DNA of 64,000 bases from an uncultured Fidelibacterota bacterium (GCA_902578385.1 CACHCR010000003.1:43048-107047), one strand, 5' to 3'. Counted from the stretch's first letter, positions 42,972 to 57,001 are shown. Translations and numbers: made by a program. Notes: a model not told the origin generated them from the letters alone.

Positions 42972-43026
42972 TGATATTAATAGAAGTAATTGAAAAAAGT
43001 TCCGTATTTAAGTACTTTAAGTAAGA

Positions 43027-43734
43027 ATGAATGCTCATGCACTAGAATTGATGATTGATGGTGTAACAAAGTTTACTGCGTTTTATCAATTAGTTTGCGA
43101 GAAGTATGTTGATACCATCGATCAGAGCAATTTTGAAAATAGCTTAATGAAAATTGCTGAGTACAAAAATCAACAAAATCTATCAGCATATTTCCTAGGC
43201 GTGGTTGACGACATAGAACTTTCAATTGGTTTGTACGCAGTTTCAGATGATATAGCAACTTCTGAAGATGGTTTAACATACAAGCAGGTTTTTAGAGGAA
43301 TGATTTGCAAGCAATTAGACAACATGTTGGATAAGGGCGTATCTACTCCAATTTTAATTCCAGAATTTTTCAAAGATGAATCAAAGAAAGAATCATATGA
43401 ATATACAGATAGCCAAAAACTTTTGTATGCTTTTGGAAAAAGTAATTCCGATACTTTTTTTAATGGAGACACACCTATCAAAAATTTAAAAGGAGATACT
43501 TTTTATATCAATTATGAAGGATGTAATCCTTCACATATTGAATCAGTTATAAATTATGAGGCTAAAGTAGATAATTTTAAAGAAGAAGATGAAGATGCTA
43601 AATTCCAATATGAACCATCTAATGATAGTAAAGATGACTGGTATGACATAAAATATTCAGAGGAAGAACAAGATAGATATAAAAATGAACAAAAGGTTAT
43701 GGATGTTGTTGACGACGACGATCTCCCTTTTTAA
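43027..43734 (+). CDS. Unknown protein ending in an SSB-like acidic tip (DDDDLPF)
   Basis: 235-aa ORF; C-terminus ...NEQKVMDVVDDDDLPF*. Confidence 0.75.
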   Translation: MNAHALELMIDGVTKFTAFYQLVCEKYVDTIDQSNFENSLMKIAEYKNQQNLSAYFLGVVDDIELSIGLYAVSDDIATSEDGLTYKQVFRGMICKQLDNMLDKGVSTPILIPEFFKDESKKESYEYTDSQKLLYAFGKSNSDTFFNGDTPIKNLKGDTFYINYEGCNPSHIESVINYEAKVDNFKEEDEDAKFQYEPSNDSKDDWYDIKYSEEEQDRYKNEQKVMDVVDDDDLPF

Positions 43735-43763
43735 TAAATAAATATGCTTGAAAGAAAAAAAAT

Positions 43764-43928
43764 ATGAAATTTGAAGATATTTTTGCTGCAATATTCTATA
43801 TAATATGGACGCCAATTATGGCAATATTTGCATTTGGTGGAATGATTTTCATGGCTTTTTTTAGTATTATTGCTTTTTTAAGCGATATTATATACATGAT
43901 TATTTATGGTGAAAATCCAAGAAATTAA
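43764..43928 (+). CDS. Small membrane protein (54 aa)
   Basis: Manual translation MKFEDIFAAIFYIIWTPIMAIFAFGGMIFMAFFSIIAFLSDIIYMIIYGENPRN. Confidence 0.45.
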   Translation: MKFEDIFAAIFYIIWTPIMAIFAFGGMIFMAFFSIIAFLSDIIYMIIYGENPRN

Positions 43929-43954
43929 TGATAAGTAAATATTAAGAGGAAAAT

Positions 43955-44239
43955 ATGAGAAGTGATTTATTTTTTGAAGGCGAAGTGGTATTTGTTAGCC
44001 AAGGATTTTTTAGAGCTACTTATTGCTTACTGGAAGATCCAACAACATTGATAGCAGTAAAAAATAGTACCCACGTAAGGAAGATTTTAGATCAAACAGG
44101 TAGATTTCCTCCTTCATTTGAAATTATTGCTCCAATGTCTGCTGTTAGAATTAAAAGAGGAACGATTCCATCAAATTATCAAAAGTTTTATTCACATGAT
44201 TATTATCTAACACTTAGGTATCAATATTTAGGTCATTAA
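43955..44239 (+). CDS. Unknown small protein (94 aa)
   Basis: ORF with aagaggaaaat RBS-like sequence. Confidence 0.5.
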   Translation: MRSDLFFEGEVVFVSQGFFRATYCLLEDPTTLIAVKNSTHVRKILDQTGRFPPSFEIIAPMSAVRIKRGTIPSNYQKFYSHDYYLTLRYQYLGH

Positions 44240-44278
44240 ATATTTATAGTATAAATAATTATATAAAGGAGGTTAATT

Positions 44279-44527
44279 ATGAAAATAGTTGCAGTTATGT
44301 TGTTTTTAGGAGCTTTGCCATTAGGTGGTGGTTATTACGATCTTTTACGAATTGTTGTTAGTATTGCTGCCTTAATTAACGTTTTAAGAGGATCATTTTT
44401 ATTTATTCCAATTCTTATCTTATTTAATCCAATTGTACCTGTTTATCTTTATGATAAAGGTTTATGGACAATTATTGATATAGCTTCTGGAATAGCATTT
44501 TGGTACGAATCTGAATATAACGATTAA
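44279..44527 (+). CDS. DUF6804-like small membrane protein
   Basis: LPLGGGYYDLLRIVVSIAAL...ILFNPIVPVYLYDKGLWTIIDIASGIAF; AGGAGG RBS. Confidence 0.55.
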   Translation: MKIVAVMLFLGALPLGGGYYDLLRIVVSIAALINVLRGSFLFIPILILFNPIVPVYLYDKGLWTIIDIASGIAFWYESEYND

Positions 44528-44532
44528 TAAAT

Positions 44533-44727
44533 ATGGGCTGCTTTAACACATTATTCATATTATTACTAGGCGGAATATACTTATTCTGGCCCGATTTAAT
44601 GCAAGTAGAAGGCTTTTGGTTTAGCTTTATAGCTATTTGGCTATGTTTCTTTGTTTCTTGGGCGTTATTTGGTGATATTGCAGACGAAATTTCAGGAGTG
44701 AATAAATATAAAGATGATGAGTTTTAA
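44533..44727 (+). CDS. Small membrane protein (64 aa)
   Basis: Two TM segments; directly follows DUF6804-like gene. Confidence 0.45.
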   Translation: MGCFNTLFILLLGGIYLFWPDLMQVEGFWFSFIAIWLCFFVSWALFGDIADEISGVNKYKDDEF

Positions 44728-44730
44728 GAC

Positions 44731-45045
44731 ATGTTTTATGTTTATGTGATCAATCTTGATAAGAAAGTTTTAAACAGTAAAAGATTCAAAGAACGCAATC
44801 CAGCTTATATCAAAGGAAAACCTTGTGTATATGTTGGACAGTCCGTTCATGAACCAAAAGTTCGTTTTAAACAGCATTTAGAAGGTTATAAATCCAATAG
44901 GTTTGCAAGAAAGTATGGTACATTTTTAAGACATAAAAATACCGGTGTTAAGAATCCATATAATAAACGTTCTTTAGCAGAAAGAGCAGAAAAGGACACC
45001 GCTAAAAGACTTCAAAAGAAAGGTTACGGAGTGTGGAGCGGTTAA
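44731..45045 (+). CDS. GIY-YIG-like small protein
   Basis: FYVYVINL...KPCVYVGQSVHEPKVRFKQHLEGYKSN. Confidence 0.55.
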   Translation: MFYVYVINLDKKVLNSKRFKERNPAYIKGKPCVYVGQSVHEPKVRFKQHLEGYKSNRFARKYGTFLRHKNTGVKNPYNKRSLAERAEKDTAKRLQKKGYGVWSG

Positions 45046-45172
45046 CATGAAGTATTGTTTTTAAGTTAATAATCGAAGATTTTAAAAAAATGATGAAACT
45101 TTTTATTGTTAAAATGATTTTAGATATGTACTATTTGCCGGTTAATTCAATAAATTACATTGGATTACCTTG

Positions 45173-48100
45173 ATGAGAATAAATTTTAAAAACTTCAAAT
45201 CGTTTAAAAGCGATCACTCCATTGATATTAAACCATTAACAATCCTTATTGGTAAAAATAATGCAGGAAAATCTACTATATCAGAATTGATAAACTACTT
45301 TACTGAATTAAAAACCCCTTATATGGAAAATACCTTGTTTTCAAGTTCTATTGATATAAAAGATTATATTAATATCCAGCATTATAAAAAATTTAAACGC
45401 AATCGTTTTCTATTGCATGAAGTAGAAACTCCTGGACCAGCTGTTTACGACGATAAAAGAATAGTAAATTATTTTGTACCTGTTTTCTGGAAGCTTGGAA
45501 AAGGTGACTATAATGAAAGTAGGTATTTAAATAGATTTGTAAAATCAATCCCTGATACAATGACGAACTGTTTATCTTTAGAGTATCATGGTGCAACCAA
45601 GAATATTAGATATCACGATAAGCATATACCGAATTCAGTTTCTTGGTCAAGAGATTTAGCAGCACTTTTTATTGAATTAGAAGCAGAAGATTATCTTTGG
45701 AATTACAAAGATAAAGTTGACAAACTTCAGGAAAAAATTGAAAATGATCAAAAGTCTGAATTTGAAATTGGTAGTTTAATTATGGATTTTGTAGATATTG
45801 TTTCAGATAATGCTCCTAATTCATTTAAGTACAGATTTAACATTAATATCAATGAAGAAAAATCACAACTACACTTCCATTCTGATGCTACAGTTTTTGA
45901 TCAATTAAAAGTAGATATAGATCCCGCCCAAAGAATACCTAATAGAATTTTTTATGAAAGCAATTCAAGTATGTTTAAGATGATTAATAGCTTAGTTGAT
46001 AATCTTGCCAAGCAGGTTTTTAAAACGACTTATACAAGATTAAGAAAAAGACACAAAGAATCTTTTGCAGCAAATGATTACCTTTCAAATAATATATATT
46101 ATAAACCAAAATTAAGAAATAGAATGCAATCAAGTTCTTTTTCATTCAATGATATTTTAGAATATTCACCAAAAGAAAATTATCTTAATGGAATAGAAAC
46201 TGACTATGCTAAATCTATAGATAACCTCGTAATTGGTTTAAGAGATTCTAATAGCAGTTTAGACAAAGCCGATCAGAAATATTTATTCAATAAAGATATT
46301 AAATCTCAATACATTAATTCTAAAATAATAGAAAGTGTAAAAAAACAAATTGAATTAAATGAAACCATTGGTCCAACAAGCAAGAAATATGTAGCGGATG
46401 GAGATTTTATTTTAAATCCAGATTTTTCAGATAAAAATGAAGTAATTACATCATTTAATTCTGCAAACGATGAAATATCAGATGATCTAATTTTTAATAC
46501 AAAAACTAATAATTATATACTTAAAACAAATAACGATATAACAAATTTTAGTGCATACAGTTCTTCCGTATCAAGTATTCTAGATTTAAATGAATTTCAG
46601 AAAATCAAATTAAAAAATCTTGAAGAAACTCTTCGAAGAAATATATTAATTCTAGATCTTCCAAATAATGAAACCAAACGAAAACTACAGCTTGCGGTAA
46701 GAGTCCATGATCCTGGCAACTATTTTATGGATTTTAGAGATCGAGATGTCTTTGCTAAAAGAACTTTTGAAGATGTACAAAGAGGTATAGCCATTAAAAA
46801 CGATTTTAACAAGTTAAATGAAATAAGAAATAATGAAGATCCCAGTGAGTTTATTCAAATTGTAAGAAGAAGCTTTGCTGTGGAGGGTATTCCAAATTAT
46901 TTAGCTCCAGAATTAGATAAGGACGATGAAAGTGCATGGAAATTTATTCAGGATAATATTAGTATAGAAGAAGGTGTTTCTCTTGAATATTCAGTAAAAC
47001 ATATTTACGATACAAATTCATTTCTTGAATTAGAAAATCTCTCAACAAATTTTCATATAACTAATTTTTCGGAAGATATGGACTCAAAAAAATCAATAAT
47101 TCTACAATATGTACATGAAGAAGAGTTATTAAGCAAAATGAATTCAGACTCGGATGAACGAATAAGCAGCTTTACGCTTAAAAAAGATTTTAAGAAGTGT
47201 GTAAATTTAGTATCCAGAAAAAGCGATATTAAGACTTTATCAGATTTACTACAATATGGTCAAAATAACGCTATTAACAAAATTATAGATGAGATTGGTC
47301 TCTCAAGTGTAGTTAAAGTTATTGGAGCTCAAAATAAGATGTTTGAAATCCAAAAATCAATAATGAATAGCAAATTTTTATCAAGATTTCCCTACGAACT
47401 TGATGAATCAAATAATAGAATAACAATGAAACGTTTTAATCAATTTCATGAAAAGGCTGAGAAGTATTTAAAGATTTTTGAGGTTTCCAAATCCAGTTTT
47501 GATGATCATCTAAATCAAAAATTATTAGAATACTCGGAAGGTGGAAGACAGCAGAAAACACTATTAATATCATTAATTAGTCATTGTGAAAATGCTCTTG
47601 ATATTTTCTCACGAATTAAATCTGAAAAATTTGGAAAACAAAAAATAGATGATATTGATATGAAGTTGTTTCAAGATTTTATCCTTGCTAATTGTATTGC
47701 AGATTTTAAGAGAGATTGCTTTGATATTATTTATGATTTTTTAGCAAATAAATATTTTAGCAAAACTATTTTTAAAAGTGAGAATATTAATATTCAATCA
47801 TCCGATTATTTTAATGATTCTTTAGAAGATTGGGATCAATGGACATATAATGAATTCTTACATGACATAAGTTATCATACCACTATTATTAGACCTGATG
47901 GTTTAAGTCTTATTGGAAGTGTCTATAGTCTAGATGATATCAAGTCACTTTTAGGAGCTGAAATTGCTCTTAAGCTTAAAATGGACCCTTCATTTGCTTC
48001 GAGAATTTCGCAATCAATAAATGAAAAGCTTGAATTAATAGATTTGGGAGATTACAAGGTTAAAATCTCAGAAATTGAAAAAGAAATTTATTCAATATCA

Positions 48101-48568
48101 GTTGATCATAATGATAATACAGTTTCTATGAATAATATTGGAGCAGGAACAAGAAGTTTAATTTCTATTTTTGGACATCTCTCAGGCTTTGAGCTAGTTA
48201 CACTTTCAAAGAAGAAAGGCTCTATTAAAAGCAATGATATATTAATTATCAGAGAGCCTGAAAACTTTATTCATCCATCATTAGTTGGAAAATTCATTGA
48301 GTATATCACAGATTTTAGAGAAAAATTTGGGGATGCAGTAAATATTGTAATTGAAACACATTCAGAAATTATTTTAAGAAAAATTCAGGTTCTAAGCAAA
48401 AAAAGTAAATTGAACTCTAATCATCTTGGCATTTATTACATTCATAAAGACGATAAAAGTAGTATAATTTCAAATATTGAATTAAAAGAGGACGGTTCAT
48501 TTAAATCAAATGCGCCTGAAGATTTTTTCGATATAAATACAAAATTAGCACAGGAGCTCTGGGATTAA
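45173..48568 (+). CDS. Large SMC/OLD-like AAA ATPase (1131 aa), DUF3696-like C-terminus
   Basis: INFKNFKSF...LTILIGKNNAGKST (Walker A), NNIGAGTRSLISI signature, ILIIREPENFIHPSLVGKF (Walker B), VIETHSEIILRKIQ (H-loop). Confidence 0.85.
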   Translation: MRINFKNFKSFKSDHSIDIKPLTILIGKNNAGKSTISELINYFTELKTPYMENTLFSSSIDIKDYINIQHYKKFKRNRFLLHEVETPGPAVYDDKRIVNYFVPVFWKLGKGDYNESRYLNRFVKSIPDTMTNCLSLEYHGATKNIRYHDKHIPNSVSWSRDLAALFIELEAEDYLWNYKDKVDKLQEKIENDQKSEFEIGSLIMDFVDIVSDNAPNSFKYRFNININEEKSQLHFHSDATVFDQLKVDIDPAQRIPNRIFYESNSSMFKMINSLVDNLAKQVFKTTYTRLRKRHKESFAANDYLSNNIYYKPKLRNRMQSSSFSFNDILEYSPKENYLNGIETDYAKSIDNLVIGLRDSNSSLDKADQKYLFNKDIKSQYINSKIIESVKKQIELNETIGPTSKKYVADGDFILNPDFSDKNEVITSFNSANDEISDDLIFNTKTNNYILKTNNDITNFSAYSSSVSSILDLNEFQKIKLKNLEETLRRNILILDLPNNETKRKLQLAVRVHDPGNYFMDFRDRDVFAKRTFEDVQRGIAIKNDFNKLNEIRNNEDPSEFIQIVRRSFAVEGIPNYLAPELDKDDESAWKFIQDNISIEEGVSLEYSVKHIYDTNSFLELENLSTNFHITNFSEDMDSKKSIILQYVHEEELLSKMNSDSDERISSFTLKKDFKKCVNLVSRKSDIKTLSDLLQYGQNNAINKIIDEIGLSSVVKVIGAQNKMFEIQKSIMNSKFLSRFPYELDESNNRITMKRFNQFHEKAEKYLKIFEVSKSSFDDHLNQKLLEYSEGGRQQKTLLISLISHCENALDIFSRIKSEKFGKQKIDDIDMKLFQDFILANCIADFKRDCFDIIYDFLANKYFSKTIFKSENINIQSSDYFNDSLEDWDQWTYNEFLHDISYHTTIIRPDGLSLIGSVYSLDDIKSLLGAEIALKLKMDPSFASRISQSINEKLELIDLGDYKVKISEIEKEIYSISVDHNDNTVSMNNIGAGTRSLISIFGHLSGFELVTLSKKKGSIKSNDILIIREPENFIHPSLVGKFIEYITDFREKFGDAVNIVIETHSEIILRKIQVLSKKSKLNSNHLGIYYIHKDDKSSIISNIELKEDGSFKSNAPEDFFDINTKLAQELWD

Positions 48569-49785
48569 TGCTTACAAATCCGATGACAAATAGATTTGTT
48601 TTGGATGCTAAGCTGATCAATGACTTTGTTGATAATAATTTTGAAATAAAAGAAGATAGTAATAATAGAAAAAACTACAATTCCTTTAATGAATGTATAA
48701 CTAAATCTAAGGGAGGCTATATCCTTAATAATGAATTTATAAGTCATTTAAGTAACATCGTTTTTAAAAAATTTCAGAATGAAGAACTTAGTAATGATGA
48801 AAATGAAACTTATAAAAACATTGTAAATTCAGATTTCAAAGATTTTCTTCTTTCATACAGGTTAGATAATAGTTGGAATAAAGTTGATTCTCTAGAAAAT
48901 GAAAAAAGTATAAATATCGACGATATTAATACAGATTGGTTTGCAGCTTTTACTCTTGAAGAAAACGAGCTATTAAAAAGTAGATGCTCTAAGAATTTAA
49001 ACTATTATGCATACAAAGATGTTATTCTTTCGTGCTTTGATCAATTTTCAATGAAAGAGCAATTTTCTGCAACTAAAGTTGATCCAGACCAATTTTTTAA
49101 AGACTTTTCTATTGTATCATCTCATTTTATGATTTTAGATCCTTACTCATTGAAAACAGGTAAATATCAAAAAAAAGATAGTATTGATTATTTAATTAAC
49201 AAGAGTAGGCTTTTATTATTTTTCTTTAAGTGGATTAATACAGTAAGTAATAAAATGGATTTTACAGGTTATAATCCAAAAATATCATTTATATCAAGAA
49301 TGCCAGAAAATACTTCTCCTAATAATTTTAAGGAGTTATTTAAAAACTATTGGAATCCATTATCAAAAAATTTTCAGGGCGAAGCAAAAGAAAATTATGA
49401 AATATTCATAAAGTTTTTAGATAAGTCAGACTTTTACAACTTTGATAGCTTAAAGGAAGATCAGATTAAAGAAATAAAATGGAATGCTCCATATAGAAAT
49501 ATTATGCATGATATCACAATTTTGACCGATTATGGATTTTTAAGCAACCCCTCAAGAGAGTTAAATTTTAATTTTTTATCAAAAAGCTATATTAATAATG
49601 TAATTGAAAGATTCAATGATAAGCATGCGTATTTTTTTAAAAATAACTTAAAGTTTGAAGGAGATGTTTTCATACGTCATCATTGTTTATCTAGAGACTT
49701 TTCAGAGGCTAATAAAAATCATTTACTTCAAAAAAGGTATGATAGTGTAATGATGGTATTAGACAAAATAAAAAATAATTCTTGA
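48568..49785 (+). CDS. Unknown protein coupled to ATPase (405 aa)
   Basis: ATG overlaps ATPase stop (TAATG); C-term RNIMHDITILTDYGFLSNPSRE. Confidence 0.7.
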   Translation: MLTNPMTNRFVLDAKLINDFVDNNFEIKEDSNNRKNYNSFNECITKSKGGYILNNEFISHLSNIVFKKFQNEELSNDENETYKNIVNSDFKDFLLSYRLDNSWNKVDSLENEKSINIDDINTDWFAAFTLEENELLKSRCSKNLNYYAYKDVILSCFDQFSMKEQFSATKVDPDQFFKDFSIVSSHFMILDPYSLKTGKYQKKDSIDYLINKSRLLLFFFKWINTVSNKMDFTGYNPKISFISRMPENTSPNNFKELFKNYWNPLSKNFQGEAKENYEIFIKFLDKSDFYNFDSLKEDQIKEIKWNAPYRNIMHDITILTDYGFLSNPSRELNFNFLSKSYINNVIERFNDKHAYFFKNNLKFEGDVFIRHHCLSRDFSEANKNHLLQKRYDSVMMVLDKIKNNS

Positions 49786-49817
49786 TTTATATGCTTTGAA
49801 TTATTAATATTTATACT

Positions 49818-49836
49818 GAATTACTTCTTGTAATTC
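49818..49836. promoter_or_regulatory. Inverted repeat GAATTAC-N5-GTAATTC immediately before operon start
   Basis: Perfect 7-bp arms ending 3 nt before ATG 49840. Confidence 0.4.
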
Positions 49837-49839
49837 TCG

Positions 49840-50316
49840 ATGAAACTCAACGATTTACCAAAAAAATATCTAGTAAATAATACCATTTTTTCGTCTATAA
49901 TTAGTGCTTGCAACCGCATAAAAAGTAAATTTGGTACATTTATTGAATTTCAATTAATTAAATGGCTAGGTCCTTATTTGCACTATGCTATAGATCGAAT
50001 TCATAGTGAAAAAGAGCAAAGCAAATTTATTCCAAAATACGAAATTGATTCAAGAGACTATGATTCTATGAAGTATGTCGTTAAAAACTACTTCAAGCTT
50101 CAAAATAAATTACATACAAATTTAGGAGCTGAAAAAGAATTAATGAGACAGATTGATAGAATGTCATTTGACGAAATAAAAGATAATTTTGATGTTATTA
50201 ATGATTCTATTAATCATTGTAGGAAAAAAACCTTTGAGCTCCCAAGCAAAGAATGCGAACAAGAATCAAAAATGATTCAACTTTCAATAGATAAAAAAGA
50301 AAACGAGAATAAATGA
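49840..50316 (+). CDS. Unknown protein (158 aa), first gene of compact operon
   Basis: Overlaps next gene by 4 nt (ATGA). Confidence 0.55.
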   Translation: MKLNDLPKKYLVNNTIFSSIISACNRIKSKFGTFIEFQLIKWLGPYLHYAIDRIHSEKEQSKFIPKYEIDSRDYDSMKYVVKNYFKLQNKLHTNLGAEKELMRQIDRMSFDEIKDNFDVINDSINHCRKKTFELPSKECEQESKMIQLSIDKKENENK

Positions 50317-51035
50317 ATTTGATAAAAAAAATTAAAAAATATATTAGCGATTTTCGTTCTAAACAGTCGTTTCAAGATAGGTTGAAGCTTTTATCTGTTA
50401 AAGCAATATCAATTTTCTCAACTCAACGTAAATGTACCAGATGTAATGGAGAAGGTTATATTGAAAAATGGAATATGTACAGATCTCATAATAAAAAATT
50501 TAATTGTGAATATAATAAAAAAAGCTATGGAGTATGTTTCATATGTAGAGGGGGAGGGTATGAATGGAAAATTCAACATATAATAACCCCAAACGAAACT
50601 TTGGAAGATATTTGTCTAAAGTATAATCTTATTAACGACAGAAATCATTCCATGAAAACCCAATTTGTAATATCATGGAATAAAATTTTAAGATATAGGG
50701 ATATTTCACAATGCGATAAACTTATTTTGTGGGTTGATTTTCATATTATGGCAGAGAATAGATCTTCATTTGTAAGAATTAAAAATGGTTATATACAAAT
50801 TAGAAACAAAGTTTCAAAAAAATGGGATTGGTTCCATAGAAATGTATCATCAAAAATTGCAGGAACTATACAAAAAGGCTATGAAGTTCATCATATCGAT
50901 CACAATAAATTGAATAATAATCCATTAAACTTAGTGCCACTTCCAAGAAAAATTCATCAGCTCTATCATAAACTAATAAATATGAAATTATTTAGAAAAG
51001 AGGAAATAATCACAAATCTTGAGGAAAAGGCATAA
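50313..51035 (+). CDS. HNH endonuclease with DnaJ-type zinc finger and LysM-like segment
   Basis: CTRCNGEGY...CFICRGGGY; HIITPNETLEDICLKYN...SWNKI; YEVHHIDHNKLNNNPLNLVPLPRKIHQLYH. Confidence 0.75.
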   Translation: MNLIKKIKKYISDFRSKQSFQDRLKLLSVKAISIFSTQRKCTRCNGEGYIEKWNMYRSHNKKFNCEYNKKSYGVCFICRGGGYEWKIQHIITPNETLEDICLKYNLINDRNHSMKTQFVISWNKILRYRDISQCDKLILWVDFHIMAENRSSFVRIKNGYIQIRNKVSKKWDWFHRNVSSKIAGTIQKGYEVHHIDHNKLNNNPLNLVPLPRKIHQLYHKLINMKLFRKEEIITNLEEKA

Positions 51036-51043
51036 ATTAGGTT

Positions 51044-51907
51044 ATGAAGTCTAATGATATAGCTACAAAACCGTTTATTAAATGGGCTGGGGGGAAATTT
51101 AAGCTAGCAGAGCAATTTCTTGATCATTTACCAAGAAATTTTAATCCTCATAAAAATAAGTTTATAGAGCCAATGGTAGGTTCTGGAGGTTTTTTCTTTA
51201 GACTTTCACCAAATAACGCTTATTTATCGGATATAAATAAAAACCTTATAACTACCTATCAAATGGTTCAAAATGACGTAGAAAGGCTTATTTCGAAGCT
51301 TGAAGAGTATAAAAAGCTACATATTGATGAAGATTTCTTTAAAGAACAAAAAAAACTATACAACGATCTCTCCAAAAAAGGTAAAAATAATTTAGAAATA
51401 GCTGCATTATTTATTTATCTAAATAAAACATGTTTTAACGGATTATATCGAGAAAATAAAAGTGGTGAGTTCAATGTACCGGTTGGCAGAAAATCAAATG
51501 GTGAATTACTACCTATGAGCGTTGATATGGAAAACCTTAGAAAAGTGAATAAGCTTTTACAGAATGTTGAACTAGCATGTCACAGTTATGAACAATGTCT
51601 TAAAGAGGTAAAACAAGGAGATTTTGTATACATTGATCCACCGTATATTCCTATAGATAAGGTATCTTTTACTCAATATTCAAAAAATGACTTTGGATTA
51701 GAAGATCATATAAAACTATCCAACTTTCTTGAAAAAATATCTGATAAAGGAGCTTTTTTTATGCTCTCTAATTCTGATACAGAAAATACAAGAAAATTAT
51801 ATCACAGAGATGCTTGGAGAATAGAAAAATTTGATGTAAGCAGAAGTATAGCTTCAAAAGCAAAAAATAGAGTTAAGGCAAAAGAATTAATAATTAAGAA
51901 TTACTAA
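51044..51907 (+). CDS. D12-class (Dam/DpnM-like) DNA N6-adenine methyltransferase
   Basis: KPFIKWAGGKFKLAEQFLDHLP; FIEPMVGSGGFFF; NKTCFNGLYRENKSGEFNVP; DFVYIDPPYIP. Confidence 0.95.
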   Translation: MKSNDIATKPFIKWAGGKFKLAEQFLDHLPRNFNPHKNKFIEPMVGSGGFFFRLSPNNAYLSDINKNLITTYQMVQNDVERLISKLEEYKKLHIDEDFFKEQKKLYNDLSKKGKNNLEIAALFIYLNKTCFNGLYRENKSGEFNVPVGRKSNGELLPMSVDMENLRKVNKLLQNVELACHSYEQCLKEVKQGDFVYIDPPYIPIDKVSFTQYSKNDFGLEDHIKLSNFLEKISDKGAFFMLSNSDTENTRKLYHRDAWRIEKFDVSRSIASKAKNRVKAKELIIKNY

Positions 51908-51916
51908 TAAAGAATT

Positions 51917-53320
51917 ATGTTAGAAGTAAATAAATATTATAGTAGAAAAGAATTATACGACATTTTTAGTGTACCTAAAAATAAAAGAAGCGGTGCATGG
52001 TTAAGAGGGCATGTAAACTATGAATATAGTTATGGAGCATATTTTCATTTTATTTTTGCAAACATCGATATTTCAGGATTTAACAAGCGTGAGGAATATG
52101 ACTATGAAAATCATTTTGATGAAAATAATGATCAATTGTTTAACTGGGTAACACAGAATCAGAGGAGTCAAAATAATCCAAGTATGAAAAATCTTTTATC
52201 AGATACACCTTTAATTTTCATCAGAACAGAAGAAGGTAGTGATTGGAAATTTATTGGTCTTGGTATTATCAAGAAAGTATCTGGAAATAAACCAGTTAAA
52301 GTTCAATTTTTAATTGATAATAATGCTAAAAGTATTATCAAATACTTTAATGATAAAAAACTTTCTAATAATGTTTATAAGCCAGTAGAAGATTTTGAGT
52401 TATCGGAAAATATGAAAATATTTAGCTCTGAAATACCTCAAGCAAATAGTTTAGAAAAAATTGAAAAACTCGTTGATTTTGCATCTAAAAATATTTGGAG
52501 ATATTATTTAATTGAGGAAGAGCTTGGAGTTGTTCACAGACAGGTTAAATATTATGTATCAGCTGCGAGTTTGTTAGGTCTAGTTGAAGGTTATAAACCT
52601 CATAAAATTACCGATATTGGTACAAAGTTTCTTTCATTAAACAAAACAGATAAAAATCTTCTTTTAAGGGAATTAATTCTAAATACAAAAGCCATGAAGA
52701 TATATTTATCGCTAATGGACAAAGATCCTAATGTAATTTTTGAAAATTATAAAAAATTTGCCGTAAATATAAATGACAACACTCTTAAAAGAAGGCTTTC
52801 TAACCTTCGAAATTGGGCAGATTTTTGTAATGAAGTAGAACCTCTACCTATTAAAAGTGACAATCCATTCGATAATATCGACGACAATGAATCAAAAACT
52901 TTAAGTGAAATTATAACAATAGAGAAAGATGAAGGAAAGTCTTCTGATGCAAGACTTAGACACAATATGTTAGTTGATCTTATGGAAGAAGTCCTTTCAA
53001 AACATGACAATGCGAAAGTTGAAAAAGAATGGAATAATATTGATCTAGTTTTTGAAAACAATGATAATTTAATTTTCTTTGAAATGAAATCTATAACGGA
53101 TGAAAATAAAGGAGATCAATTAAAAAAAGCGCTTGGACAGCTCATTTTTTATAAAAATGTAGTAAAGAAAGATGCTGAGCTAGTTGTTGTTCTTGAATCG
53201 TATTTTAGTGATGTAGATATTTTAGATAATGATCCAATAAATGTTGTCTGGAAAGAAGGAGATTCATTTAATGCTAATGAAAAAACAAAAGAAAAATTGA
53301 AGGTTATTTTTGATCAATGA
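51917..53320 (+). CDS. Putative restriction endonuclease: DUF3427-like N-terminus, winged helix, C-terminal PD-(D/E)XK
   Basis: YYSRKELYDIF...NPSMKNLLSDTPLIFIRTEEGSDWKFIGLG; VHRQVKYYVSAASLLGLVEG...ITDIGTKFL; NNIDLVFENNDNLIFFEMKSI...LKKALGQLIFYK. Confidence 0.7.
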   Translation: MLEVNKYYSRKELYDIFSVPKNKRSGAWLRGHVNYEYSYGAYFHFIFANIDISGFNKREEYDYENHFDENNDQLFNWVTQNQRSQNNPSMKNLLSDTPLIFIRTEEGSDWKFIGLGIIKKVSGNKPVKVQFLIDNNAKSIIKYFNDKKLSNNVYKPVEDFELSENMKIFSSEIPQANSLEKIEKLVDFASKNIWRYYLIEEELGVVHRQVKYYVSAASLLGLVEGYKPHKITDIGTKFLSLNKTDKNLLLRELILNTKAMKIYLSLMDKDPNVIFENYKKFAVNINDNTLKRRLSNLRNWADFCNEVEPLPIKSDNPFDNIDDNESKTLSEIITIEKDEGKSSDARLRHNMLVDLMEEVLSKHDNAKVEKEWNNIDLVFENNDNLIFFEMKSITDENKGDQLKKALGQLIFYKNVVKKDAELVVVLESYFSDVDILDNDPINVVWKEGDSFNANEKTKEKLKVIFDQ

Positions 53321-55005
53321 GTAAAAAAATTATACGTGATTATTCGTTTCAGCTAGATGCAATTCACTGCATAAAGAGAGATTATAATAAGAAAAAAAAT
53401 GCTCGAATGCTTCTTATTATTCCGACAGGAGGAGGGAAAACTTTAACCGCAATAAGAGCTGTGGATGAAATGATCAAAGATAATGTAATAAATCAAAATA
53501 ATAAATGTCTTTGGATTACACATTTAAACTCTTTAGAACAACAAACCTCTGAGGTAGTAAATAGTCATAAATGGAAGAAAGAATTTAATTTTTCTGATCA
53601 ATTACAATCATGTTTAGAAATTAAAATGAAGCAAGAAGCTATAGAATTACTTGAGAACGATATTAATAATGAATATGGACTTGTAATAATTGATGAATGT
53701 CATCATTCTTCGGCTAAATCCTATCAACAAATTTTTGACAATCCAAAGCTGGCAGTGTTAGGTTTAACTGCGACTCCTAATAGGAGCGATAAAAAATCTT
53801 TAAATTTTGAAGGACCTACATATCAAATTACTTTCGATGAATTAGAGAGACGTAATGTAATTATTAAACCTAAGCCAGATAAAATAACCATTCCTGATGA
53901 AATTGATGCTGACAGCTTAAAATCCCCAAGATTTGACAATTCAAAAAGAAATAATCATATAGTTTCAGCAGTTCTAGAAAGAAGAAGATTATCTTTAAAT
54001 AAAAATAATGAAAATTATTCAAAAATTATTGTCTATGTAAATACTGTAAAACACGCTAAAAACCTTTATGAAACATTCGTCAGCAGATCAAATATTAATG
54101 AATTATATGATTTTGTAGGATTCATTGAGGGTGGAAAAAATTCAAACGGATGTTCAAATGAAGATTTTCTTAAAGATTTTAAACAAAATAAGTCGGGTAT
54201 AATTATTAACGTTAACGTTTTATCGGAAGGATTTGATGACCCTTCCATAAATACTATCTTAATGGCTGTTCCTACAAACTCCTTAATTCGATACATCCAA
54301 TGTGTTGGAAGGGCAATTAGAGTTCCTGATAAGGATAATGTTTGTATTCCTATCATTGTAGAATGTACTGAGGAGCTACCAAATATCGATTACAGAATTA
54401 CTTATGGCTGGTTATTTGCTGATATATCTGATGAATTAGAGCCAATTCTTATCAATCATACAATTAAACCTGTTCCAAGTTTTTTAAGTTGGGTTTATAC
54501 AAATGAAGTAAAGCACTTTTTAACTAGTTTATTTAATGACGATAAATATAATTTAAGAAAATATAATTTTGATAATTTAAAAATTAACAATCTTTCAGAA
54601 ATATCAAATTCAAATATATTTTTATATTGGGCAGGTAGAGATATAAATAGATTAGATGATATCAGATGGAGAAGTATAGTTATTGCTCCAGAGAATAAAC
54701 CTCGATTTATAGAAGCTTATAATAGAATTAATAGCGGAATAATTAATGGATTTAGTGATCGAATAATCTTTGATGAACTTTATCCAGAATTAAAAGAATT
54801 ACCATATTTAAACAATAAAACAAAAAGATATAATCTTTATTTTGCGATGTATATGAGTTATCTAGATAAACTAAATGGTCAACAGAATAATAGATTAAAA
54901 TATATTATATTTAAGAGAGATTCATACAATGAATCGATTTTTACAAGAATTAAAAATTTTATTAAATATTTTTTTAAATTATACTTGAATAAAAAAAGGA
55001 AATAA
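53317..55005 (+). CDS. SF2 (SSL2-like) DEAH-family helicase
   Basis: IIPTGGGKTLTAIRAV; IIDECHHSSAKSYQQI; LGLTATPNRSD; YIQCVGRAIRVPDKDN. Confidence 0.92.
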   Translation: MSKKIIRDYSFQLDAIHCIKRDYNKKKNARMLLIIPTGGGKTLTAIRAVDEMIKDNVINQNNKCLWITHLNSLEQQTSEVVNSHKWKKEFNFSDQLQSCLEIKMKQEAIELLENDINNEYGLVIIDECHHSSAKSYQQIFDNPKLAVLGLTATPNRSDKKSLNFEGPTYQITFDELERRNVIIKPKPDKITIPDEIDADSLKSPRFDNSKRNNHIVSAVLERRRLSLNKNNENYSKIIVYVNTVKHAKNLYETFVSRSNINELYDFVGFIEGGKNSNGCSNEDFLKDFKQNKSGIIINVNVLSEGFDDPSINTILMAVPTNSLIRYIQCVGRAIRVPDKDNVCIPIIVECTEELPNIDYRITYGWLFADISDELEPILINHTIKPVPSFLSWVYTNEVKHFLTSLFNDDKYNLRKYNFDNLKINNLSEISNSNIFLYWAGRDINRLDDIRWRSIVIAPENKPRFIEAYNRINSGIINGFSDRIIFDELYPELKELPYLNNKTKRYNLYFAMYMSYLDKLNGQQNNRLKYIIFKRDSYNESIFTRIKNFIKYFFKLYLNKKRK

Positions 55006-56306
55006 TGATGTCTGATAAAGCAAAAAAAATTATTAAAAACGCATTAAATAAAGTTGATAGAAAGCATATTCCAGTCGAACAATTATTATTATGGAGAAAT
55101 AATCCAAGATTGATTGAATTAAGAGATCAAGAAGTAGATTACGATAAACTTTCTTTAGCTCAGGATGAAGTTCAAGAAATTTTAATGAGCCAACACAAAA
55201 CTAAAGAACTTGTTGATAGTATATTGAGCAGTGGTTGGCTTGATCAAGAATTAATGATGGTTGCTGAGTATGAAAAGGATAGTAGTGGAAAAATGCAATA
55301 TATTGTCCTTGAAGGCAATAGAAGAACAACAGCTATTAAACATATTCTTAATCATGAAAAAAATATTTCTGGAGTAAAAGATGGCTATGATATTAGAAAT
55401 TTTGAAAAAGAGCAGTTGGGTGGAGGAGTATCATGCTTAATTGCTGGAAAATATAAAGAACTGCAAAAAAAGGGTGATATTCAAGCTGAGGTAGACAGAA
55501 TTTTAAATGCTAGACATATGTTTGGTCAAGAAGAGTGGAAACTTCACAGAAAAGCATTTCAAACCTTTAATAAGTATATGGAAGAACTTGCGTTAGTTCA
55601 TTCAGGGGTAGATCCTAATTCACCTGATACATTTTTTATTGACACAAAAGTAGTTAAGCAAAGAGCAAAAATAATGTGTGAAACACCAGCGAAAATTAAA
55701 AACTATCTTTATTTATATACATTGAGACATCAAATCTCTTCAAAGCTGGTTTCAAGCTACGGAATTGATTTTGATAATAATAAAACATCCTTTATAGAGG
55801 AGTTCTTAAAAAAACCAGCCTTAAAAAATAGATATCTATTTGATCCAAATTATGGAGTTATGGGTGATGACGATGTATTGATTGAAGAAATGACACCACT
55901 AGAGCTATTTATTAGTCTTGTTTTTAGATATGAAAGAGCTGATGGTAGCGGAGAAAATAAACCAATTATTTCAGCTGCATCAGCAGGACAATCTAACTTA
56001 AGAGATTATGGTTACGTAGTTGATAACGATAGAAATGAATTGGAATATGTAAAGATGATTGAAGTAGGTGATGGTACAGGTCCTGAATCAAGAGTTATTG
56101 CCAAAATTGCTAGAGCTAAGTGGGATGCACAAAGTCTTCAATGGAAAGTTGGAGAATCTTTTCAGCAAATAGCCAAAATATTGGATGACATTAATACAAA
56201 AACAATCCATGAAGCAAGATCTGATGCAATGGAGCAAGATTATAAGAAAATTAAGGAAAAATTTTCATTAATTGATGCTGCTCTTAAGCAAAAATCTAAA
56301 TTTTAA
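55005..56306 (+). CDS. ParB/sulfiredoxin-fold domain protein
   Basis: HIPVEQLLLWRNNPRL...ELVDSILSSGWLDQELMMVAEY...YIVLEGNRRTTAIKHIL. Confidence 0.75.
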   Translation: MMSDKAKKIIKNALNKVDRKHIPVEQLLLWRNNPRLIELRDQEVDYDKLSLAQDEVQEILMSQHKTKELVDSILSSGWLDQELMMVAEYEKDSSGKMQYIVLEGNRRTTAIKHILNHEKNISGVKDGYDIRNFEKEQLGGGVSCLIAGKYKELQKKGDIQAEVDRILNARHMFGQEEWKLHRKAFQTFNKYMEELALVHSGVDPNSPDTFFIDTKVVKQRAKIMCETPAKIKNYLYLYTLRHQISSKLVSSYGIDFDNNKTSFIEEFLKKPALKNRYLFDPNYGVMGDDDVLIEEMTPLELFISLVFRYERADGSGENKPIISAASAGQSNLRDYGYVVDNDRNELEYVKMIEVGDGTGPESRVIAKIARAKWDAQSLQWKVGESFQQIAKILDDINTKTIHEARSDAMEQDYKKIKEKFSLIDAALKQKSKF

Positions 56307-56355
56307 TTTTGACTTATTAAATAATTTTTAACAATCATTTTCTGGCTCAAAAGAT

Positions 56356-56901
56356 ATGAAAATAGATCAATACTATATAGAAAACATTTGGAATAAGCTC
56401 CAATCAAGCTCAAATATAATATCTGATAATTCAGGACATGTTCAAAGCACATGGGGTCTATATATAGTGCATTGCGAATTACTTGAAAACCAAGAATATC
56501 TTAAAATAGGAAAAGCAAATGATCTTAAAAACAGAATAGTTGATGGACATATGAGTGGAAAAAATGAAGGATTTGGCAAGACAATTTTAAATACTTGGCT
56601 TGCAAGAGATGAAGAATTAAGGAAAAAAGTAAATATTGATTTAACGAAGCAAAATGAAAGGATATCATTTATTAATAAATATTGCAAGTTTCAAATTCTT
56701 GTTTTTGATAGAAAAGATCGAATAAATTGCATGGAAATAGAAGCAAACAATAATCTATATTTGCAGTATAAAGATTATTGGGGTATTAATAAAGGACGCG
56801 ATCCAATTGAATATATAGAAAAACCTATTGAGAAAACTTTAAAAGAAAATAATTTGGTAAGATATATTAGAGGTAATAAATTAGATCAATGCAAATTATA
56901 A
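56356..56901 (+). CDS. GIY-YIG/T5orf172-like protein
   Basis: WGLYIVHCELLENQEYLKIGKANDLKNRIVDGHMSG...MEIEANNNLYLQYK. Confidence 0.6.
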   Translation: MKIDQYYIENIWNKLQSSSNIISDNSGHVQSTWGLYIVHCELLENQEYLKIGKANDLKNRIVDGHMSGKNEGFGKTILNTWLARDEELRKKVNIDLTKQNERISFINKYCKFQILVFDRKDRINCMEIEANNNLYLQYKDYWGINKGRDPIEYIEKPIEKTLKENNLVRYIRGNKLDQCKL

Positions 56902-56970
56902 TAAAAAATCATAGAACTATGTATATAATAACTAATTCGTTGATATATCGTGGTTTATTAACATTTTACG

Positions 56971-56986
56971 CATAATATATATTATG
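56971..56986. repeat. Perfect 16-bp palindrome CATAATATATATTATG
   Basis: Read directly in the sequence, upstream of ATG 57002. Confidence 0.5.
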
Positions 56987-57001
56987 TATAATTAGTGACA
57001 T

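What the first reader, a model, noticed from the sequence alone, without database searches (positions are those of the whole stretch)
49840..56901. Candidate undescribed restriction/defence operon: unknown-HNH-Dam-(DUF3427-like/wHTH/PD-(D/E)XK)-SF2 helicase-ParB-like-GIY-YIG
Seen directly: seven same-strand ORFs almost without gaps (overlaps at 50313-50316, 53317-53320 and 55005; gaps of 8-9 nt around the methylase; 49 nt before the last gene). They encode one adenine methylase, three proteins with nuclease motifs (HNH, PD-(D/E)XK, GIY-YIG), one helicase and one ParB-like protein. Known: D12 methylases normally pair with a single type II nuclease (DpnII, EcoRV). DISARM, BREX, Dnd and type I/III systems have different methylase classes or signature genes (no DrmB, PglZ, DndA-E or HsdS seen here). 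Inference: a multi-effector R-M-like system in which the methylase gives self-protection and the helicase drives the nuclease.
Basis: partly seen in the sequence, partly recalled or inferred. Interest (0 to 1): 0.85.

Follow-up and report, generated by a model that had tools for sequence, protein, structure and literature searches.

The report
Composite DNA-restriction island with helicase-ParB pair
A tightly packed, recently acquired gene block in a small-genome bacterium appears to combine an ordinary DNA-marking/DNA-cutting pair with a DNA motor and a ParB-type switch protein that travel together elsewhere, so it is probably a new composite version of a restriction (anti-phage) system rather than a wholly new kind.

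Summary
The seven same-strand ORFs are real, with the stated overlaps and gaps. Domain calls were confirmed for HNH, the Dam/DpnM methylase, DUF3427, DUF7226 wHTH, a PD-(D/E)XK motif and the SF2 helicase; the ParB-like call is a weak domain match; GIY-YIG and the first ORF rest on motif or nothing.

Most likely: a modification-guided, ATP-dependent restriction system built from an R-M pair plus a portable helicase-ParB module. HNH and GIY-YIG membership is unproven. No second copy of the whole operon was found. New variant of a known kind.

The parts
49840..50316 (+). ORF of 158 aa, unknown, translationally coupled to the HNH gene
   Evidence: no match in Pfam, PADLOC, NCBIfam; only noise in PHROGs
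50313..51035 (+). HNH nuclease, 240 aa: CxxC..CxxC zinc-finger-like N-terminus, HNH_3 domain aa 173-216 (HHIDHN at 193); homing-endonuclease-like
   Evidence: Pfam HNH_3 1.8e-9; PADLOC HEase 1e-5; PHROG HNH 2e-11; no relative in 244 phylum genomes
51044..51907 (+). Dam/DpnM-type D12 N6-adenine methyltransferase, 287 aa, DPPY at 198
   Evidence: TIGR00571 dam 9.7e-80; PDB 2dpm (DpnM) 1.6e-47 over the full length
51917..53320 (+). Restriction nuclease, 467 aa: DUF3427 + DUF7226 wHTH + PD-(D/E)XK
51920..52342 (+). DUF3427 domain (aa 2-142), related to the SRA-fold target-recognition domain of SauUSI
   Evidence: Pfam PF11907 32.2 bits vs cut-off 27.7; SauUSI 7clg residues 807-914, E 0.003; SRA fold from PMC7913695
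52505..52825 (+). DUF7226 winged-helix domain (aa 197-303)
   Evidence: Pfam 2.3e-11; matches L003, L006, L084/L087
52950..53236 (+). PD-(D/E)XK nuclease domain, approximate limits (D376, E389, K391)
   Evidence: motif conserved with L003; related Tolypothrix protein carries the same motif
53317..55005 (+). SF2 helicase/translocase, 562 aa, SauUSI/RadD-like; Walker A at 38, DECH at 126, TATP at 151, GRAIR at 331
   Evidence: Pfam ResIII 5e-20; PDB SauUSI 5e-15, RadD 6e-12; motif positions
55005..56306 (+). ParB/Srx-superfamily protein, 433 aa, EGNRRT signature at 103-108
   Evidence: PADLOC PD-Lambda-5_A 3e-12, PDC-M38A 1e-8; PHROG 3694 1.5e-12; full-length homologue in L007
56356..56901 (+). 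GIY-YIG-like protein, 181 aa, possible cargo rather than core
   Evidence: motif by eye; no Pfam or PDB match; no relative in 244 phylum genomes
45170..49785 (+). Adjacent upstream pair: OLD/AAA-type ATPase (1132 aa) and 405-aa unknown, 1-nt overlap; probably a separate unit
   Evidence: AAA_21 1.4e-8; PADLOC NsnB 7e-25; gap of 54 nt to the block

Best explanation
A modification-guided, ATP-dependent restriction system acquired into a genus-wide defence hotspot. Core: (M) a Dam/DpnM-type methylase that marks host DNA, probably at GATC; (R) a nuclease with a SauUSI-type DUF3427/SRA-fold reader, a wHTH and a PD-(D/E)XK catalytic domain; (H) a SauUSI/RadD-like SF2 motor as a separate subunit; (B) a ParB/Srx NTP-binding protein. 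Proposed action: R (with the wHTH and reader) inspects DNA; a site lacking the host mark, or carrying a foreign modification, recruits H, which translocates on ATP and positions or stalls R for double-strand cleavage, like a SauUSI whose motor and nuclease are on two chains. B acts as an NTP-controlled clamp, loader or nicking subunit for H. Shown: gene order, domains, M-R pairing in relatives, H-B pairing in one distant locus, defence hotspot. Inferred: complex formation, self-protection by M, DNA specificity, the role of B.
For: Core ORFs overlap or abut within 9 nt. All three DUF7226 proteins found in 245 phylum genomes sit beside or near a D12 methylase: the window, G220 (next gene) and G021 (two genes from a Dam-type methylase). 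DUF3427 reader confirmed, and the same domain is fused to other nuclease types elsewhere: NOV_C in L002, HNH in L004/L005. The helicase's best PDB hit is SauUSI. In Curtobacterium plasmids a DUF7226 protein lies one or two genes from an SF2 helicase carrying an Mrr-type nuclease, so nuclease and helicase are linked in another arrangement. Helicase and ParB-like genes are adjacent in the same order on Agrobacterium pTi next to dndBCDE; shuffled-alignment z = 52 and 23, and only this pair is shared. Hotspot with restriction-modification cargo in relatives.
Against: The full operon is found once. Helicase-ParB linkage rests on one independent locus (two near-identical plasmids). DUF7226 R-M pairs in L003 and L087 have no adjacent detected helicase, although both contigs are short (4.2 and 14 kb). 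The GATC assignment is by family only; GATC is no rarer here than in relatives (0.76 vs 0.70 of expected). AlphaFold models were unusable (pLDDT 32 and 36).
Confidence: 0.42

Rival explanations
1. Stacked independent modules: a self-sufficient type II-like R-M pair (Dam + 467-aa nuclease), next to a separate helicase-ParB defence module, with HNH and GIY-YIG as homing-type or hotspot cargo. They share a transcript but not a mechanism.
For: R-M pairs with DUF7226 nucleases exist without the helicase in view; Agrobacterium has helicase-ParB without a Dam or DUF7226 gene; hotspots stack systems; small GIY-YIG genes of another subfamily recur in the hotspot.
Against: 4-nt start/stop overlap between the nuclease and helicase genes, plus DUF7226-helicase proximity in Curtobacterium, suggest coupling.
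Confidence: 0.35
2. The 467-aa protein is a type IV (modification-dependent) nuclease that cuts DNA carrying foreign modified bases; the Dam-type methylase is a solitary or anti-restriction methylase.
For: The DUF3427 reader is shared with SauUSI, whose SRA-fold domain binds 5mC (PMC7913695); SauUSI pocket residue W868 aligns with an invariant Trp here, while the base-reading Asp858 aligns with an invariant Asn, suggesting a different target.
Against: The catalytic half belongs to DUF7226 nucleases that accompany D12 methylases in both other phylum members, the normal R-M arrangement.
Confidence: 0.12
3. A divergent PD-lambda-5-like system (ParB-like protein plus adenine methylase) with extra genes.
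For: PADLOC matches: the ParB-like protein to PD-Lambda-5_A (3e-12) and the methylase to PD-Lambda-5_B (3e-17).
Against: The A match covers only the N-terminal ~100 of ~466 positions; the methylase fits ordinary Dam/type II models far better (6e-85).
Confidence: 0.05
4. Mobile-element counter-defence or replication cargo (ParB-like, SF2 helicase and Dam genes occur together in phages and conjugative elements).
For: Such domain combinations in polyvalent proteins (PMC5512222); SF2 core similar to phage helicases.
Against: No integrase, capsid or transfer genes seen in the block; chromosomal hotspot with R-M cargo in relatives; no ParB-like or nuclease relatives in the phage records.
Confidence: 0.05

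Closest known systems
Type II R-M pairs of D12 methylase + DUF7226 PD-(D/E)XK nuclease (seen here in G220/L003 and G021/L087)
   Same: Methylase class, wHTH domain, nuclease fold, gene proximity
   Different: These lack the DUF3427 domain; no helicase or ParB-like gene seen in their short contigs
SauUSI (type IV, PLD-SF2-coupler-SRA/DUF3427)
   Same: DUF3427 reader and closest solved relative of the helicase
   Different: Here nuclease and motor are on separate proteins, the nuclease is PD-(D/E)XK not PLD, and a methylase is present
Agrobacterium larrymoorei pTi DGQHR-HNH-helicase-ParB cluster beside dndBCDE
   Same: Adjacent helicase and ParB-like homologues in the same order, a different HNH gene upstream, modification genes alongside
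   Different: Phosphorothioation instead of Dam methylation; no DUF7226/DUF3427 nuclease; HNH not homologous
PD-lambda-5 (Vassallo et al. 2022, PMC9519451)
   Same: ParB-like protein and adenine methylase combination
   Different: Only the ParB N-terminal domain matches; the nuclease and helicase are extra
Type I/III R-M
   Same: Methylase plus SF2 motor and nuclease
   Different: No HsdM/HsdS or Mod; the helicase has no fused nuclease; Dam-class methylase

Membership tests
Type II R-M | Cognate methylase and sequence-specific nuclease encoded together | tested here: met
   Adjacent Dam-type methylase and PD-(D/E)XK nuclease, 9-nt gap; pairing or proximity repeated in both other DUF7226 loci of the phylum. 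Gene content only; sequence specificity not shown
Type II R-M | Cleavage at the recognition site without ATP, blocked by the cognate methylation | not testable with these tools
   needs biochemistry
Type IV SauUSI-like | PLD nuclease, SF2 ATPase and DUF3427 TRD in one chain | tested here: not met
   DUF3427 and SF2 helicase are on two proteins; no PLD domain found
Type IV SauUSI-like | Cleavage dependent on a modified base | not testable with these tools
   needs biochemistry; the residue aligned to Asp858 is Asn
PD-lambda-5 | Full-length PD-Lambda-5_A ParB-like protein | tested here: not met
   only profile positions ~4-91 of 466 match
PD-lambda-5 | PD-Lambda-5_B methylase as best match | tested here: not met
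   2.6e-17 against 6.4e-85 for a type II methylase model
Type I R-M | HsdM and HsdS genes with HsdR | tested here: not met
   no HsdM/HsdS match among the block proteins
Dnd/DISARM/BREX | DndCDE, DrmAB/MII or PglZ/BrxC | tested here: not met
   no matches in PADLOC or NCBIfam for the block proteins

The most novel reading that the evidence does not exclude
Helicase plus ParB-like protein form a portable, NTP-switched restriction module that plugs into chemically different DNA-marking systems (Dam m6A here, phosphorothioate in Agrobacterium), a previously undescribed general 'restriction engine' with interchangeable modification partners and nucleases.
Probability: 0.2. Interest if true: 0.8.

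Novelty: new variant of a known kind. Interest (0 to 1): 0.5.

Why it matters
If the helicase-ParB pair works with the Dam-type R-M nuclease, restriction motors can be detachable subunits regulated by a ParB-type nucleotide switch, and the same pair next to dnd genes would help explain which proteins restrict DNA when DndFGH is missing, a question raised in PMC10853773. It also records a rich, hardly sampled defence hotspot in a streamlined-genome lineage.

Tried and rejected
Structure prediction of the nuclease and the ParB-like protein from single sequences gave pLDDT 36 and 32; no fold search was run on them. Viral-contig scans with the nuclease, ParB-like, helicase and DUF3427 queries gave nothing; both genome-contig scans also. 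GATC avoidance as a sign of restriction: same in relatives, rejected. Promoter/terminator scan: no more sites than shuffles, uninformative. PDC-M38A family as a ParB tracer: most hits fall in the second half of its profile (positions ~350-480), not in the ParB-like part, so it was dropped. Azospirillum ATPase as a homologue of the upstream ATPase: no similarity. Literature searches found no paper describing this operon or DUF7226.

Full report
OBSERVATION. The ORFs, strand, overlaps and gaps are as described. The block sits in a 946-kb, 14-contig genome (75.7% complete) from a phylum represented by 245 genomes. Two further same-strand genes, a 1132-aa OLD/AAA-type ATPase and a 405-aa unknown, lie directly upstream (45170-49785), and DUF998 and leuS lie downstream.

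DOMAINS. HNH_3, MethyltransfD12, DUF7226 and SF2 helicase domains are significant. The methylase aligns over its full length with DpnM (2dpm, 1.6e-47) and with Dam (7e-36), including the R-x-N-x(3)-[E/Q]-FNVP-x-GR stretch near the target-recognition loop; GATC specificity is therefore likely but not shown. The N-terminal 166 aa of the 467-aa nuclease, scanned alone, match DUF3427 above the curated cut-off, and a four-sequence profile finds the TRD of SauUSI (7clg 807-914, E 0.003). That TRD has an SRA fold with pocket residues Y831, F841, I842 and W868 and base-reading D858 (PMC7913695). In the HMMER alignment W868 corresponds to an invariant Trp of this family and D858 to an invariant Asn, hinting at a different base preference (inference). 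The C-terminus has D376-x12-E389-M-K391, shared with a homologue in L003 and with a Tolypothrix protein next to a cytosine methylase. The ParB-like protein has the EGNRRT signature, but matches known families mainly through its N-terminal part. The GIY-YIG call is motif-only.

LOCATION. In ten same-genus genomes the leuS-DUF998 neighbourhood was compared. Flanking genes are conserved but the DNA between them is not: type I R-M genes in L041, D12-like methylases in L043, cytosine methylases in L044 and L048, other methylases in L049, fragmentary or partial restriction genes in L046, L047 and L050 (contig ends), and only an epimerase-like gene in L045 (several assignments are by reading motifs in the translations, others by Pfam). 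This is a defence-cargo hotspot. The helicase, ParB-like, HNH and GIY-YIG proteins have no relative at the search threshold in the other ~244 genomes of the phylum (for the helicase the threshold was 1e-20, so generic SF2 helicases are not counted), which implies acquisition from outside.

WHAT TRAVELS WITH WHAT. (a) Methylase and nuclease: the only other two DUF7226 proteins in the phylum are a D12 methylase-nuclease pair in G220 (adjacent) and a Dam-type methylase / 168-aa gene / nuclease cluster in G021. (b) DUF3427: fused to NOV_C in L002 and to HNH in Priestia and Geobacillus plasmids, i.e. a reader swapped among nucleases. (c) DUF7226 and helicase: in Curtobacterium plasmids a DUF7226 protein lies close to an SF2 helicase that carries an Mrr_cat_2 nuclease. 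(d) Helicase and ParB: the best plasmid hit of the helicase (27-30% identity over 375-475 aa) is on Agrobacterium larrymoorei Ti plasmids, and the very next gene is a homologue of the ParB-like protein, with similarity also in the C-terminal part (z = 9.4; whole protein 18-23; helicase 52). No other gene is shared between the loci. That cluster also holds a DGQHR protein and an unrelated HNH protein, and lies beside dndBCDE. The next-best helicase hits (Alicyclobacillus) have no ParB-like neighbour.

MECHANISM. The best reading is an R-M pair whose nuclease has a modification/sequence reader and which is served by a separate SauUSI/RadD-like motor and a ParB/Srx switch. SauUSI itself couples an SRA reader, SF2 translocation and nuclease dimerisation in one chain; the nuclease and helicase here supply equivalent parts on two chains encoded with a 4-nt overlap. 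ParB/Srx proteins bind CTP, ATP or GTP and can act as clamps (PMC12704722), and several in conflict systems are NTP-regulated DNases (PMC5512222). Complex formation and roles are inferred. The main rival is that the R-M pair and the helicase-ParB pair are neighbours without a shared mechanism; current data do not decide strongly between them.

KNOWN SYSTEMS. None of PADLOC, NCBIfam or Pfam assigns the block to one system. PD-lambda-5 is excluded as a strict assignment because only the ParB domain is shared and the methylase fits type II models much better. SauUSI membership fails on domain organisation. Type II R-M membership is met for the methylase-nuclease pair by gene content; activity is untested.

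LIMITS. One copy of the full operon; one independent helicase-ParB locus; searchable collections were capped and the single-sequence genome scans have low sensitivity; the genome is an incomplete assembly; no usable structure models.

Noticed in passing
window 43000-57000: The DUF998-leuS junction is a genus-wide hotspot with different restriction/methylase cargo in most relatives and nearly empty in one (L045).
   Followed up: partly
window 45170-49785: A 1132-aa OLD/AAA-type ATPase (PADLOC NsnB 7e-25, weak DUF3696) overlaps by 1 nt a 405-aa protein without any match; possibly a separate two-gene defence system.
   Followed up: partly
L042:14796-15446, L044:12440-13060, L048:8076-8672: Mutually related GIY_YIG_2 proteins recur as cargo of the hotspot in different species.
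   Followed up: partly
L007:4089-11014: Agrobacterium Ti plasmid: DGQHR-HNH-helicase-ParB cluster next to dndBCDE, a candidate restriction partner for phosphorothioation.
   Followed up: partly
window 44731-45045: A second small GIY-YIG-like ORF (104 aa) just upstream of the ATPase.
   Followed up: no
L089:1139-2017: DUF3427 fused to a NOV_C (DUF3883-type) domain, about 3.5 kb from a leuS gene in a different family of the phylum.
   Followed up: no
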